Source of the DNA: Desulforamulus ruminis DSM 2154
GTDB lineage: Bacteria > Bacillota > Desulfotomaculia > Desulfotomaculales > Desulfotomaculaceae
DNA: 64,000 bases
Reading direction: 5' to 3'
NCBI RefSeq assembly: GCF_000215085.1
Contig: NC_015589.1
Coordinates: 2,430,120 to 2,494,119 of the forward strand
Below the pieces are notes generated by a model that made no database searches, had not been told where the DNA came from, and saw only the letters and a program-made list of their open reading frames with translations. The position numbers were made by a program, and so were the translations under genes. Positions 3,798-61,408 of the stretch are shown here, piece after piece. The stretch's first letter is position 1; each line of letters begins with the position of its first letter.

Positions 3798-4559
3798 GTG
3801 CCCAATTTTAAAATCTTTCAGGACAATCCAGATTACGCCAGGATAAAAATCTACGGCAATAACAATATACCCTTTAACACGGATGCAACCGGAAACCTGG
3901 GGATTACATCAGAAGGTCTGGCCGTTACCGCCCCGGTTGGCGGTTTAGCCATTACACCTCCCAGCGAAGGGATGACCATCACATCCACCGGTTTGGCGGT
4001 CACTGCTCCGGCCAACGGGCTTACCGTTACCGCCCCGGCCAGCGGTTTATCCATTACGCCCCCTACCGATGGCTTAACCATCACATCCACCGGTCTGGCG
4101 GTCACTGCTCCGGCCAACGGGCTTACCGTTACCGCCCCGGCCAGCGGTTTATCCATCACGCCGCCCACCGAAGGCTTACTGATTACCTCTACCGGGTTGG
4201 CGGTAACGGGTACTCTGTCGACAACTCTGGCTACCACCGACGTATCCACCGTCATAGCAAACATTACAGACATCGACGGATCTCCTGACGCAACCTATAA
4301 TGTTTTGGGCATCGCCACCTGGACCTTTGGGGTGGTTAACGAATCCACCGAGGACAACGCGCAGGCTCTGGTTAAGCTCCAGCTCAGTCCGGACGGCACC
4401 AATTGGATGGATGATGTCAGCTATACCACCATCAATCAGAACTCCTTGGCAACCTTTGTAGCGACCCCCTTCCTGAAATACGCCAGGTTGTACTATGCAG
4501 CCGTTAATGCAGCCAGCGCCGTCACCTTAAACATCTTCTTCCAAGGTCAGACCTCTTAA
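3798..4559 (+). CDS. Repeat-rich surface-type protein (resembles DUF6385 proteins)
   Basis: The gene starts at GTG 3798 behind AAGGAGGA and encodes 253 residues. Residues about 30-135 are Thr/Ala/Pro-rich units of about nine residues (GLxVTAPAx, GLSITPPTx), which suggests a beta-rich stalk or solenoid. The C-terminal about 110 residues form a compact domain (TDVSTVIANITDIDGSPDAT, then a Trp-rich stretch) that I associate with DUF6385-type proteins of spore-forming Firmicutes, though no search was run. There is no signal peptide or anchor. It is divergent from two GT2-TPR genes, and its Thr-rich repeats could be their glycosylation target (inference). Confidence 0.7.
   Translation: MPNFKIFQDNPDYARIKIYGNNNIPFNTDATGNLGITSEGLAVTAPVGGLAITPPSEGMTITSTGLAVTAPANGLTVTAPASGLSITPPTDGLTITSTGLAVTAPANGLTVTAPASGLSITPPTEGLLITSTGLAVTGTLSTTLATTDVSTVIANITDIDGSPDATYNVLGIATWTFGVVNESTEDNAQALVKLQLSPDGTNWMDDVSYTTINQNSLATFVATPFLKYARLYYAAVNAASAVTLNIFFQGQTS
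3975..4178 (+). repeat. 102-bp tandem repeat inside the DUF6385-like gene
   Basis: Two nearly identical 102-bp units (3975-4076 and 4077-4178) each encode a 34-residue block of the TAP/TPP repeat. They differ at a few mostly synonymous positions. Recent unit duplication or contraction is expected at such a locus. Confidence 0.9.
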
Positions 4560-4597
4560 ACACAGCCTAGATCCGGAACTTTCCTTTAGTCAAATAA

Positions 4598-4638
4598 GGG
4601 CTGCTGCAAAAGAACCAAAAGGTTTCTTTGCACAGCCC
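4598..4638 (+). terminator. Hairpin after the DUF6385-like gene
   Basis: GGGCTG-C-TGCAAA on the left pairs with TTTGCACAGCCC on the right, with a small bulge and a short A-rich loop. It lies 40 bp after the stop at 4559. The T-tract is poor, so this may act as a processing or stability hairpin. Confidence 0.5.
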
Positions 4639-4691
4639 CTTGGCGCCCAATTATAAATTAGTTTTTGTGACACGCCGTTTCTAATTTTAAA

Positions 4692-4710
4692 GGGACTGCT
4701 AAGCAGTCCC
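4692..4710 (-). terminator. Bidirectional terminator between convergent genes
   Basis: GGGACTGCT and its complement AAGCAGTCCC form a near-perfect stem. On the minus strand it follows the YkgJ gene stop and is trailed by TTTAAAATT. It could also serve the plus strand. Confidence 0.65.
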
Positions 4711-4723
4711 CTTAATGTATTAT

Positions 4724-5440
4724 TTATAACATTTTTCCTATCCCGGCTAAAACTTGCTCATCATTTAAGTGATTTTCCAGCCAGGTAAAGGCATATTTCA
4801 TCAGTGCTTCATCATCATGCTGAAGGTCCCCGGGCAAATCCTCCGGCTTACAACCCATGACTGTGGGGCCTGTTAAAAGCATTTTCCTGAAACGATCCAA
4901 ATCGTAACAGGCGATAAAGATCATGTCCATCCGAACCTTCTCCAGAAATGGGTCCTTTAACGCTTTTATCTTTAAAGGAATCCCGCCAAATAAATCTTCG
5001 GTTTCATTATAAATTTCAAGCCCCTGGTTGTCCATCCATCCCTTCACGGTCCATTCCCGGGCTTCTTTTAAACCATGGCAACGGGAAGGTTCAAAGGCAA
5101 TGCCATATTCTCCTTTACCCCGGACTTCCACCGGAGCCATTCTGCAGGACCAGGGACGCACAGAATATACCTGGCACCCGTAATCGGTAATAAAAGGACA
5201 AACCAGGTTATCTTCCCTCATCTTTAATACCACCACCGGAAATCCGGAACCGGGCACCCTTAAAACGTGAGTATGCCGCTCCAGAAATTCGCCCGATGAC
5301 AACCCCAATTGATTTTTCATGCGCAGTACGTCATAAGGAGTCAAAAAAATATTGATGTCCCTGCAGCATTGTTTAAAACATGCCAGTTGTTCGTGGCAGG
5401 AAAAACGAAATGTACCGTTGATGGTTAAGTTTTGGCCCAT
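4724..5440 (-). CDS. YkgJ family cysteine-cluster protein
   Basis: This 238-residue protein carries the cysteine pattern of the YkgJ/CxxCxxCC family: CHEQLACFKQCC near residue 15, then CPFITDYGC and YSVRPWSCR about 60-80 residues later. The family is thought to bind zinc or an Fe-S cluster and its biochemical role is poorly defined. The ATG at 5440 is preceded by AGAGGAG. The gene stands alone on the minus strand, and the eut genes lie upstream with an 88-bp gap. No partner is evident. Confidence 0.85.
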   Translation of the reverse strand: MGQNLTINGTFRFSCHEQLACFKQCCRDINIFLTPYDVLRMKNQLGLSSGEFLERHTHVLRVPGSGFPVVVLKMREDNLVCPFITDYGCQVYSVRPWSCRMAPVEVRGKGEYGIAFEPSRCHGLKEAREWTVKGWMDNQGLEIYNETEDLFGGIPLKIKALKDPFLEKVRMDMIFIACYDLDRFRKMLLTGPTVMGCKPEDLPGDLQHDDEALMKYAFTWLENHLNDEQVLAGIGKML

Positions 5441-5528
5441 AAAACTGCTCCTCTACCTGTTTATCTTTTTATTTATTATAGCACAATCCTTAACCTAACA
5501 CAGACAGGCAGGGAAATAAAAGGATTCT

Positions 5529-6998
5529 TTACGGATCCCTTTCAAAAATCAATGTTTTGATCACCACCGGAACGGTGCTCCCATCCATAATGGGAATTCC
5601 GATGTCAATGTAGTCGCCGTCCTCCACACGGATTTGATCTAAACAGATAACATCACACCTTTTTCTCGTTAATAGAACCCTTAAAGACTGTCCCAAAACT
5701 TTGGCGCAATCTTCTTCCAGTATTAAAACCAAGGGTTGTGACTTGGCATAGTCCTTTGTAACCTGGATAATCACGGCTGCAATTTCCTGTATTTTTTTAA
5801 AGCCAACTCTACCAAGACCTTTTAAAGCGATGGCAACGGGTTCTTGAAATCCTTCCGACCTGTAAGGCCATAATTGCCCTGCCAAGCCCTGGCTCATCTC
5901 CACTTGACTTAGCGGCACTTCGTCCGGAAAGGGCTTTATCACCGGAATGTTGCGCATGGGCAGCCGTTCAGGTGCAATATCGATGGTGCTGCCGCTTAAG
6001 TTCATAGTATGGGAACCTGCCCCAATAACCGTAGCCCGGAGGGTCTCTCTGGGCCTGACCAATTGCCAGGATTCATGATCAAAGTTTTCTTTAATGGCCC
6101 GTCCCAATAATGGGCCAATATCTCCAAAACGGCTACACTCTTGAACATTCCGGATTTCCTTCCCGGAATAAATAAAATCAGCCACGCCTCCGGAAAAGGT
6201 AACATAATGAATCGGGTAGTCCAGCCGAAGAGAGGGCCCCATGAGGATGCGGCTGGTCACGGGAGGCAGTAATCCGGGCTTTAATAAATTTCTGATTGCC
6301 CTGGCCATGTTTACGGTTAGGGCTTTAAGGGCTTCCAACTCTAATCCTTTTCCTACTTCCCAGCACTGTCCCCCTTCTTCCAGGATAATCTTTGCGGCAG
6401 GGGCCAAATATTGGATGAATTCTCCACCGGGATCCAATTCCACCAAACGTCCGCCTATATTGACACAGGTAGCATCAATGACTCTCCCTTCCCTAAACAC
6501 CGCCAGATTGGAAGTTCCTCCACCCACATCGATATTCAGAACCACCCGGTGAAATTCGGAGGACATGGCGGCTGCTCCGGCACCCCTGCCGGCCAGAACC
6601 GATTCCAGTAAAGGCCCGGCGGTAGCGACCACGAAATTTCCGGCATAACCGGCCAGGGCCTCGGACAGACTCCTGGCGTTTTCTTTTTTTGCGGTTTCGC
6701 CGGTGATAATCACCGCTCCGGTATCCACCTGCTCCGGGCCAAGCCCGGCCTTTTGATATTCCCGAGCAATGATTTCGGTAACCCCCTGGGCGTCAATCCT
6801 TTCTCTAGTCAATAGCGGGGTAAAATAAACCTCACTGCGGTAAAGGATTTCTTTGCCTGTGATCGACATGTGGGGAACCATTGAACCGGGAGCTGTGTTG
6901 CATACCGATATGCGGCTGACAACCATTTGGGTGGTGGTAGTACCCACGTCAATACCCACACTGGTCATTTCCTCCATCTGCTTGGCCGTACTTAGCAC
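5529..6998 (-). CDS. eutA: Ethanolamine ammonia-lyase reactivating factor EutA
   Basis: This is an actin/Hsp70-like ATPase of 489 residues. The phosphate-binding segment GIDVGTTTTQMV is near the N-terminus and a second glycine-rich strand, NIDVGGGTSNLAVF, near residue 170. EutA exchanges damaged cobalamin out of EutBC using ATP. It is the last gene of the permease-eutB-eutC-eutA run. The start is unclear: GTG 6998 sits on top of the AAGGAGG box and is too close to it, ATG 6977 is rather far, and an ACG (6987-6989) has the best spacing. Confidence 0.9.
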   Translation of the reverse strand: MLSTAKQMEEMTSVGIDVGTTTTQMVVSRISVCNTAPGSMVPHMSITGKEILYRSEVYFTPLLTRERIDAQGVTEIIAREYQKAGLGPEQVDTGAVIITGETAKKENARSLSEALAGYAGNFVVATAGPLLESVLAGRGAGAAAMSSEFHRVVLNIDVGGGTSNLAVFREGRVIDATCVNIGGRLVELDPGGEFIQYLAPAAKIILEEGGQCWEVGKGLELEALKALTVNMARAIRNLLKPGLLPPVTSRILMGPSLRLDYPIHYVTFSGGVADFIYSGKEIRNVQECSRFGDIGPLLGRAIKENFDHESWQLVRPRETLRATVIGAGSHTMNLSGSTIDIAPERLPMRNIPVIKPFPDEVPLSQVEMSQGLAGQLWPYRSEGFQEPVAIALKGLGRVGFKKIQEIAAVIIQVTKDYAKSQPLVLILEEDCAKVLGQSLRVLLTRKRCDVICLDQIRVEDGDYIDIGIPIMDGSTVPVVIKTLIFERDP

Positions 6999-57479: not shown

Positions 57480-57552
57480 TTTTTATTTATAGTAAAAATT
57501 AAGTAAAAGAGGTCTACCATGGAAATTGGTAGCGACACCCATAAAAAGATGA

Positions 57553-57740
57553 TATACTGACAACAGACGAGGGTGTGGCTCGTGGGGTTAGTTGCTCATG
57601 AAAATGAGTTAACTCGGCTCTGAAATGCCGCCCTCGTTTTGTTGTTATCCATGACATTTACCGGGATGATGCCGTCCTGCGGGAAGTGGCTCTGTTAGTA
57701 GACGTGATGTTGGATAACAACGGGGTGGCGCCATAAAGGG
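57553..57740 (+). ncRNA. Candidate IS110 bridge RNA
   Basis: A -10 box TATACT (57553-57558) precedes two large stem-loops in the noncoding left part of an IS110 element. Loop 1 is closed by CAACAGACGAGGG (57561-57573) with CCCTCGTTTTGTTG (57631-57644), and has an inner CTCAT-GAAA-ATGAG hairpin. Loop 2 is closed by a perfect 11-bp stem GTTGTTATCCA/TGGATAACAAC (57641-57651, 57711-57721). Two internal loops between promoter and transposase match bridge-RNA architecture. The 3' end is not defined. Confidence 0.65.
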
Positions 57741-57751
57741 AGGGGTTGTAT

Positions 57752-59043
57752 ATGCAACAACAGCACCTGTTAGTCGGCGTGGATGTAGGGTGCCGCAAAC
57801 ATCACGTCGCCATTGGTGGATCTGGCGGGATCACAGAACAATTTGAAATCACGCATGACGCCCGAGGCTTTGCGTATTTCTTTGGGCGTGTTAGTGAACA
57901 GGCACGACGCCAACGCTTGCCGGTTGTCGTCGGTATGGAAGGCACTAACGGCTATGCCCGGCCCTTAGATCAACTTGTTAAAGACAAAGGGTATACCCTC
58001 TTGAATGTCAACAACTTAAAATTGGCGCGGTTTAAAGAAATATTTGCGTCTCCGACCAAAACGGACAGTATTGATGCACAACAGATTGTCACGCTTATGA
58101 TGATGGCTCCCTTTATGGAGCAGGTCAAAGAATCCCTGCAACCCGTACTGACTGTCAGCGAGATCGAACAGCAGCTCAAACGGCTCAGTCGCCGCCGCAG
58201 ACATTAGTACAGGAGAAAGTCAATGTGCAAAACCGCATGCAGGTGGACCTTCAATCTGTGTGCCCAGGATTTCTTGATATCATTCATAAAGTGGATGCGC
58301 TCTATGTATTGCGCTTCCTCAGCTTTCGTTCCGATCTACGCCAGCTAGCCAGACTGAGGCCGGCCACCATCCGAAGCATTCCCGGCATAGGCGTGACCAA
58401 AGCGGCGATGTTGGCACGATGGCAGTCCAGCGCCGTCTTTGGATCGGAAATTGCCTGGGTGGGACCGATGATTGTAGAAGACGCCAAACGCTTGCTGCAA
58501 CTAAAGGGAGCAATTGATTCGCTGGAAGCCCAACTGGAGGCTTTGGTTAAACAGTCTTTACTAGCAAGAATCCTTGACAGCATCCCGGGGTTCGGGACGA
58601 TCAGCGCAGCGGAGGTCAGTGGCGAAATTGGGACGATGACACGATTTGCGTCAGAAGCCAGTCTAGCTATCTATTTAGGGATGGCTCCGCTTGACAACAG
58701 CTCCGGCAAGCATAAGGGAACGAAATCGCCGCAACAAGTTAATAAACGGGCTAAGGCAGCCATGATGGTGGGCATGGGGCATCATATCCGCAAAGTAGCT
58801 GAATCAAAAGCATATTATGAAAAGAAACGGACCGAAGGAAAAAGGCACAATCAGGCCTTGCGTTCGTTAGGTAGACACATTACCCGTGTCTTTTGGAGCA
58901 TGGTAAAAAACAACCGTCTATACGAAGAAAAAAACAATCTCCTGTTACATAATTTTATGATAGCTAGGGAGAATGGGATGTCGTTTCAACTGCCTAACTT
59001 CCAATATTTTACTGAATTAGCTCTGGCAGATAAAATCTCTTGA
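57752..59043 (+). pseudogene. IS110 transposase split by a one-base frameshift
   Basis: ATG 57752 (GGGAGGGG upstream) begins a DEDD transposase: GVDVGCRKHHVAI, GMEGTNGYARPLDQ, KTDSIDAQQI. The frame ends at 58207 after LSRRRRH. The next frame continues as QTLVQEKVNVQNRMQ and on through a transposase_20 domain (IPGIGVTKAAML, IPGFGTISAAEVSGE, YLGMAPLDNSSGK, RAKAAMMVGM) to 59043. Adding one C in the CGC run at 58190-58198 restores one frame of about 430 residues. Unless it is a programmed shift, the copy is inactive. Confidence 0.88.
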
Positions 59044-59061
59044 CAAATCGAGCGGGATGTT

Positions 59062-59109
59062 CAGGCCTACATTATTACACATTGTAAAAAGTGCAATAAT
59101 GTAGGCCTG
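59062..59109. repeat. Long inverted repeat after the IS110 element
   Basis: CAGGCCTACATTATT and AATAATGTAGGCCTG are perfect 15-bp arms, with CAC/GTG pairing further in and a short A-rich loop. It may be a terminator or part of the IS right end. Confidence 0.7.
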
Positions 59110-59304
59110 ACCTTAATTATTCTCTTTAAAACTCACTTTATAATGAGGGAACGTTCCTTTTTTGTTAAATATTTTTCTTAACTGACTCAGGAAGTAATTT
59201 AACTCGGACTTTTAGATAAACAACCAGTCGAAACATGGATTGCTCGATATATTGAGAAAATGACCGTTTCTTTTCCGTCAAAAAATTGGCGGTAACATTA
59301 ATAA

Positions 59305-60117: not shown

Positions 60118-61408
60118 GTTTTTAGCTTACCTATAAGGATTTGAAACTGCCATTTCTGTATCCCTAGAGGTTGACACTATGGCGGTTTTTAGCTTACCTA
60201 TAAGGATTTGAAACAAGCGTCTATATGTCGTTCTCCAAAGTCTGAACTATGTTTTTAGCTTACCTATAAGGATTTGAAACAGAGATTTTTCAATCTCTTC
60301 CTCTGGTTCAAAAACTTGTTTTTAGCTTACCTATAAGGATTTGAAACTACTTTTTTGCAATTTCCTTGATTTCTATTACCGACGTTTTTAGCTTACCTAT
60401 AAGGATTTGAAACGGAATGATCCCTCGTTCAGGATTTCAGGTTTTAGTGAGTTTTTAGCTTACCTATAAGGATTTGAAACCCACCTTCCAGTATAAATGA
60501 TGTTTTTTATTTAAAAGAGTTTTTAGCTTACCTATAAGGATTTGAAACCGCATACTGCGAGAAGAAAAGAATCTAACCCTTGAGTTTTTAGCTTACCTAT
60601 AAGGATTTGAAACCCGCTCAGCAGGCACTGGAACATAAATTAATTGACGAGGTTTTTAGCTTACCTATAAGGATTTGAAACTAAGCGCAAGAAAGACGGT
60701 AGCTATAGGCCTGTAGGGTTTTTAGCTTACCTATAAGGATTTGAAACTTCCATTATCCCAATTAATATCATCCCATTTAAGAGTTTTTAGCTTACCTATA
60801 AGGATTTGAAACTCTCACCCCCTCCATTTTCTTGAACACCGCCCCACAGTTTTTAGCTTACCTATAAGGATTTGAAACACCATTGGCTGATTTTGTCAAT
60901 AACGCTTTGTTTGTGTTTTTAGCTTACCTATAAGGATTTGAAACCTAAACTTAGAAGGAGGTGTGGGAAATGACTAACTTGTTTTTAGCTTACCTATAAG
61001 GATTTGAAACATGTCCTGCTCAACTTTCACCCGCTGGCCATCATGGGTTTTTAGCTTACCTATAAGGATTTGAAACTTTGGAGGTGGTAGCTATGGGTTA
61101 GGTGAGAAAAAAGTTTTTAGCTTACCTATAAGGATTTGAAACCCCAAGGGTTAAAAGGAGAAAAAGAGATAAGGATTGGTTTTTAGCTTACCTATAAGGA
61201 TTTGAAACGTAAAACAGGCCGGTGTGGGAGCGGTGGAAGCTGGAAGTTTTTAGCTTACCTATAAGGATTTGAAACAAAGGGGATGGCTATTACCGTGATC
61301 AGGAAAAGTAAGTTTTTAGCTTACCTATAAGGATTTGAAACTGAGGATCTAAAAGAACGACTGCAAATTTAGTCATTAGTTTTTAGCTTACCTATAAGGA
61401 TTTATCAA
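60118..61408 (+). CRISPR. CRISPR array, 20 repeats and 19 spacers
   Basis: The 30-bp repeat begins GTTTTTAGCTTACC and ends AAGGATTTGAAAC; 19 copies are identical and the last (61379-61408) ends in ATCAA in place of GAAAC. Spacers are 35-38 bp, all different. The leader is on the left and the degenerate repeat on the right, so the array reads on the plus strand. The repeat end GAAAC is usual for type I-B/III systems. No cas gene lies in this window. Confidence 0.97.

What the first reader, a model, noticed from the sequence alone, without database searches (positions are those of the whole stretch)
57553..57740. Two-loop structured RNA in front of an IS110 transposase, likely a bridge RNA
A promoter -10 box stands immediately before two consecutive stem-loops (a 13-bp imperfect and a perfect 11-bp stem) and the transposase start follows. 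Bridge RNAs of IS110 elements have just such target- and donor-binding loops. The loops should carry guide segments matching this insertion site, though the transposase itself is frameshifted here.
Basis: partly seen in the sequence, partly recalled or inferred. Interest (0 to 1): 0.8.

Follow-up and report, generated by a model that had tools for sequence, protein, structure and literature searches.

The report
Bridge RNA of an IS110 element
The region encodes the guide ("bridge") RNA of a jumping gene of the known IS110 family, and its loops match both the genomic palindromes the element inserts into and the element's own ends; the kind of system is already known, so this is a well-supported new example rather than a surprise.

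Summary
Positions 57556-57728 encode a two-loop structured RNA in the left end of an IS110-group insertion sequence (57513-59062). Three more copies in the same genome fix the ends, with a TC core. Removing the element restores a perfect 19-bp inverted repeat at its target.

An unprejudiced scan of the RNA puts the best matches to left target, right target, left donor and right donor in the order LTG-RTG-LDG-RDG, two per loop, as in IS621 (the left-donor match is tied with a second stretch). The target guides rank first, or within the first seven, among 4,090-5,552 positions at all 15 insertions tested in four genomes.

The RNA is 87-91% identical between lineages whose recombinase genes are 65-70% identical. 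Compensatory changes support the stems. The targets are REP-like palindromes, several beside RAYT transposase genes.

Corrections: the -10 box next to the RNA is not conserved in the other three genomic copies; a promoter rebuilt at the circle junction (TTGACA-17-TACCAT) is. All four recombinase genes in this genome are broken; relatives have intact ones.

New member of a known kind, distant from IS621. Transcription and activity are untested.

The parts
57513..59062 (+). IS110-group element, both copies of the TC core included
   Evidence: ends fixed by aligning four copies in the genome
57513..57514 (+). left core TC
57515..57522 (+). right donor half-site TACCATGG; TACCAT is also the -10 of the junction promoter
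   Evidence: conserved in G167, G205, G339
57553..57558 (+).
57556..57728 (+). bridge RNA, extent of the covariance model match
   Evidence: 187 bits
57566..57638 (+). target-binding stem-loop
   Evidence: fold z = -4.9
57582..57589 (+). left target guide GUGGGGUU
   Evidence: best 8-mer of the RNA for the left targets
57617..57623 (+). right target guide GCUCUGA
   Evidence: best 7-mer for the right targets
57641..57721 (+). donor-binding stem-loop with perfect 11-bp closing stem
57662..57671 (+). left donor guide CGGGAUG(AUG), matching CGGGATG of the right end
   Evidence: tied with 57703-57712
57696..57702 (+). right donor guide UAGUAGA, pairing with TCTAC(C)A
   Evidence: best 7-mer for core plus right donor
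57752..58207 (+). recombinase, N-terminal DEDD part (PF01548), cut short by a frameshift
58225..59043 (+). recombinase, C-terminal part (PF02371), other frame
59040..59045 (+). TTGACA, -35 of the junction promoter, 17 bp from TACCAT in the circle
   Evidence: same in G167, G205, G339
59052..59060 (+). left donor half-site GCGGGATGT in the right end
59061..59062 (+). right core TC
57510..57512 (+). first three bases (AGG) of the interrupted palindrome arm; the rest is 59061-59076
   Evidence: joined flanks give AGGTCAGGCCTACATTATT
59061..59113 (.). rest of the target palindrome; intact partner arm at 59095-59113

Best explanation
This is the bridge RNA of an IS110-group element. Mechanism inferred from IS621 (PMC11208160): the element excises as a circle in which right end meets left end; this brings TTGACA (59040) and TACCAT (57515) to 17-bp spacing and drives an RNA through the left end; the recombinase binds the RNA; the first loop (LTG GUGGGGUU, RTG GCUCUGA) pairs with the two strands of a target around a TC core, the second loop (LDG CGGGAUG, RDG UAGUAGA) with the element's own joined ends; recombination at TC inserts the element into one arm of REP-like palindromes. 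Shown here: ends, core, target sites, fold, conservation, positions of the pairing stretches, junction promoter motif. Not shown: transcription, binding, activity. The copies in this genome are probably not autonomous now, because each recombinase gene is disrupted.
For: Four copies share exact ends and a TC core. Two stem-loops fold better than shuffles. Compensatory change: 17 cells against 7.4 expected, 0 of 500 shuffles; 96% of cells paired against at most 47% when slid. Best guide stretches lie in the right loops in IS621 order. Guides rank the true site first in 9 of 15 insertions and within the first seven in all, out of 4,090-5,552 positions. RNA 87-91% identical where the gene is 65-70%. 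Junction promoter TTGACA-17-TACCAT in four lineages. Recombinase passes the NCBIfam model 'IS110 family RNA-guided transposase' and matches IS621 and ISCro4 in the PDB. Empty site restores a perfect 19-bp palindrome.
Against: No RNA data. Donor-guide matches alone are weak: a 7-base match to the left donor turns up in 235 of 2000 shuffles, a 5-base match to the right donor in 1416 of 2000, and the left-donor stretch is tied with another. Targets are similar among lineages, so guide-target covariation is limited. The count of pairs with double changes is not remarkable (54 of 500 shuffles). The window's own target is a poorer match (11 of 15) than L002's (13 of 15).
Confidence: 0.93

Rival explanations
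1. The structured region is a 5' untranslated leader or attenuator that regulates recombinase translation, as reported for ISPpu9 (PMC8450116), and not a guide.
For: It lies directly upstream of the start codon and would be in any recombinase transcript; ISPpu9 tnp is controlled by small RNAs and its 5' leader (abstract).
Against: Does not predict that loop stretches match target and donor in IS621 order. The Shine-Dalgarno-like GGGAGGGG lies outside the stems. A regulatory role could exist in addition.
Confidence: 0.04
2. The recombinase recognises the palindrome shape of REP-like sequences, and the guide matches are a by-product of G-rich sequence.
For: Several targets are arms of inverted repeats, and G-rich guides match GGGG easily.
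Against: L017 and L172 sit at GGGG-TC-AGGACTG sites, which fit their own guides better (13 of 15) than the usual REP arm does. Insertion is at the same base and orientation in every copy. IS110 relatives use RNA guides (PMC11208160, PMC11187229).
Confidence: 0.02
3. The element is dead and the RNA is only a relic: a former bridge RNA with no present function in this genome.
For: All four recombinase genes are disrupted.
Against: The RNA is almost identical in all four copies, but so recent a spread needs no selection. This concerns present activity, not what the RNA is; breaks could also be sequencing errors.
Confidence: 0.4

Closest known systems
IS621 and its bridge RNA (Durrant et al. 2024, PMC11208160)
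   Same: RNA in the left end; two loops in the order target, donor; guides LTG-RTG-LDG-RDG including the core; promoter rebuilt across the circle junction; REP targets.
   Different: Core TC instead of CT; recombinase about 400 aa and only weakly similar (E = 5.6e-8); a separate 5' stem-loop before the target loop was not established here; different guides and REP family.
ISEc21 and other IS110 elements with seekRNA (Siddiquee et al. 2024, PMC11187229)
   Same: Non-coding region upstream of tnp giving a guide RNA; IS110 group as opposed to IS1111.
   Different: Different element and target; seekRNA length not known here.
IS110 elements in REP sequences, including ISPpu9 (PMC1525189, PMC8450116)
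   Same: IS110-family element inserted in REP sequences, several copies per genome.
   Different: Here the REP-like repeats lie in genomes whose nearest named relative is a Bacillota MAG, several beside RAYT genes, and guide matches are shown by comparison.

Membership tests
IS110 family (IS110 group) | DEDD domain PF01548 plus C-terminal PF02371 | tested here: met
   Both domains above cut-off, in two frames in the window; intact relative passes NF033542 at 179.6 bits against 140
IS110 family (IS110 group) | Longer non-coding end upstream of tnp, RNA in the left end (IS1111 has it downstream) | tested here: met
   Left end 239 nt, right end 17 nt in the window; 254-367 against 111-145 in relatives
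IS110 family (IS110 group) | Insertion at a short core without further target duplication | tested here: met
   TC at both ends; joined flanks restore the palindrome
Bridge RNA (IS621 type) | Two stem-loops with internal loops, conserved by structure | tested here: met
Bridge RNA (IS621 type) | First loop pairs with the target: 5' side with the bottom strand left, 3' side with the top strand right, core included | tested here: met
   core in the LTG is a U-G wobble in this genome
Bridge RNA (IS621 type) | Second loop pairs with the donor in the same manner | tested here: inconclusive
   Best right-donor match is in place and left-donor match is in place but tied; shuffles often match as well by length alone
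Bridge RNA (IS621 type) | Promoter rebuilt across the joined ends | tested here: met
   TTGACA-17-TACCAT in four lineages, as a sequence motif only
Bridge RNA (IS621 type) | 5' stem-loop before the target loop | tested here: inconclusive
   Only a short inverted repeat, 57514-57532, upstream; not examined across relatives
Bridge RNA (IS621 type) | RNA is made, binds the recombinase and is needed for recombination | not testable with these tools
   Needs small-RNA sequencing, binding and recombination assays

The most novel reading that the evidence does not exclude
The bridge RNA is under selection beyond its own element. It is nearly invariant while every recombinase copy in this genome is broken, and left-end fragments with little or no recombinase (L010, L176, L178) persist in a related genome, so RNA-only remnants may act in trans with another recombinase copy or on REP/RAYT loci.
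Probability: 0.07. Interest if true: 0.5.

Novelty: new member of a known kind. Interest (0 to 1): 0.25.

Why it matters
It adds a lineage of IS110 elements with a TC core, a recombinase of about 400 aa and natural targets in REP-like palindromes, several of them next to RAYT genes. Seven copies with an open recombinase frame in one related genome would make it a workable extra bridge-recombination system to test. It does not open a new question.

Tried and rejected
Rfam search of 55-62 kb: no match to the region; the miRNA hits at 59057-59114 are the target palindrome, below gathering scores. A first guide scoring with the RTG one base out of register gave weak ranks and was corrected; the register was set by the core. 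A short pattern scan of viral contigs returned a capped list of 120 contigs; I judged these chance matches of a short pattern and did not inspect them. The L009 match in G103 looks like a chance match in coding sequence. No close relatives in viral contigs or plasmids, none of the left end in phages, none in the other genomes of the class. Core CT was considered and rejected because left (GG-TC-TACC) and right (GT-TC-AGG) junctions share only TC. Spacers of the nearby CRISPR array that hit at E <= 0.01 in the loci compared only hit the array itself, in loci that contain it.

Full report
What is there. The window carries an IS110-group element. Its recombinase is split by a frameshift into a DEDD part (57752-58207, PF01548) and a Transposase_20 part (58225-59043, PF02371). 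The same genome holds three more copies, 98-99% identical. Aligning all four fixes the ends: left flank ...GG|TC|TACCATGG, right end GCGGGATGT|TC|AG.... The shared core is TC, at 57513-57514 and 59061-59062. All four recombinase genes are disrupted, at different places: by frameshifts in three and by an insertion in the fourth; sequencing errors cannot be excluded for the single-base changes. An intact 400-aa relative is in a Bacillota MAG (L012, 89% identical). More distant relatives with long open frames (63-67%) occur in G205, with seven copies, and in G167 and G339.

The RNA. The two stem-loops are real and fold better than shuffles. Seven left ends align at 86% mean identity. A covariance model finds the window copy with 187 bits, and diverged copies in G167 and G339 that served as new data. 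On 11 sequences, 96% of cells are paired, against at most 47% when the partners are slid. There are 17 cells with a change on both sides, against 7.4 expected (0 of 500 shuffles). The number of pairs with such a change (6) is not remarkable (54 of 500), so this is support, not proof. Between lineages the RNA is 87-91% identical while the recombinase gene is 65-70% and the part of the left end upstream of the RNA mostly 71-79% (90.6% for G167 against G339). The non-coding RNA is therefore more constrained than the gene.

Guides. I scored every 8-mer and 7-mer of the window's RNA against the four targets in this genome. The best left-target stretch is GUGGGGUU (57582-57589). The best right-target stretch is GCUCUGA (57617-57623), on the opposite side of the same loop. 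For the donor, the best right-donor stretch is UAGUAGA (57696-57702). The best left-donor stretch is CGGGAUGAUG (57662-57671), tied with CGUGAUGUUG (57703-57712). This is the IS621 order, LTG-RTG-LDG-RDG (PMC11208160). By length alone the donor matches are not beyond chance; their weight comes from their place. Scored over 4,090-5,552 positions around each of 15 insertions, the guides of each element rank the real insertion point first in nine, and within the first seven in all. Some of the competing positions are the other arm of the same palindrome. The 15 insertions are not independent, since most targets belong to a few repeat families. Elements with different guides sit at sites that fit them: G205/G167 have LTG GCGGGGUC and RTG GUCCUGA, and two of their sites, TTGGGG-TC-AGGACTG, match 13 of 15.

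Targets. Joining the window's flanks restores AGGTCAGGCCTACATTATT, the perfect partner of 59095-59113. Both G339 insertions also sit in palindromes. In this genome GGGGTCAGGCTTGACTTATTGA-like sequences occur 14 times within three mismatches, against 0 for the reversed control; two of the 14 are element junctions. Two of them flank a RAYT-type gene (Y1_Tnp match 1444001-1444336) in opposite orientation. The L002 copy lies just upstream of a broken Y1_Tnp gene, and several G205/G167 copies lie beside genes that begin like it. An uninterrupted site nearly identical to L020's right flank is seen in G167 (L176). The window's own palindrome arm occurs nowhere else in the genome at two mismatches or fewer. 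REP targeting by IS110 elements is known (PMC1525189, PMC11208160).

Promoter. Joining right end to left end gives TTGACA-17-TACCAT in the window and in three related lineages, as described for IS621.

Verdict. This is a bridge RNA of a new but ordinary IS110-group member. The mechanism is inferred by homology and anatomy; transcription and activity are untested.

Noticed in passing
window 60118-61341 (- strand): CRISPR array of 19 repeats (GTTTCAAATCCTTATAGGTAAGCTAAAAAC, Rfam CRISPR-DR2) with 35-38-nt spacers, 1 kb downstream of the element; at E <= 0.01 no spacer matched the rest of the window or the fetched loci other than the array itself.
   Followed up: partly
G000:C1:1443886-1444847 (L033, L034, L040): A RAYT-type gene (MVRKPRVHYAGAIYHVIARGNN...) flanked by inverted REP-like sequences of the family this element inserts into.
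   Followed up: partly
L010 1388-1700; L176 1380-1640; L178 1370-1630: Left-end and bridge-RNA fragments in G167 with no recombinase detected directly behind them; in L010 another transposase gene lies behind in opposite orientation.
   Followed up: partly
L017 and L008, upstream of the bridge RNA: The longer left ends in G205/G167 carry an extra inverted repeat AAAGGGGTCTGATTC...GAGTCACACCCCTTT of unknown role; its GGGGTC resembles the target.
   Followed up: no
L012 1990-2120 and 3610-3720: The same ~110-bp sequence stands on both sides of the L012 element, whose right end is missing; possibly a recombination product or a MAG assembly fault.
   Followed up: no
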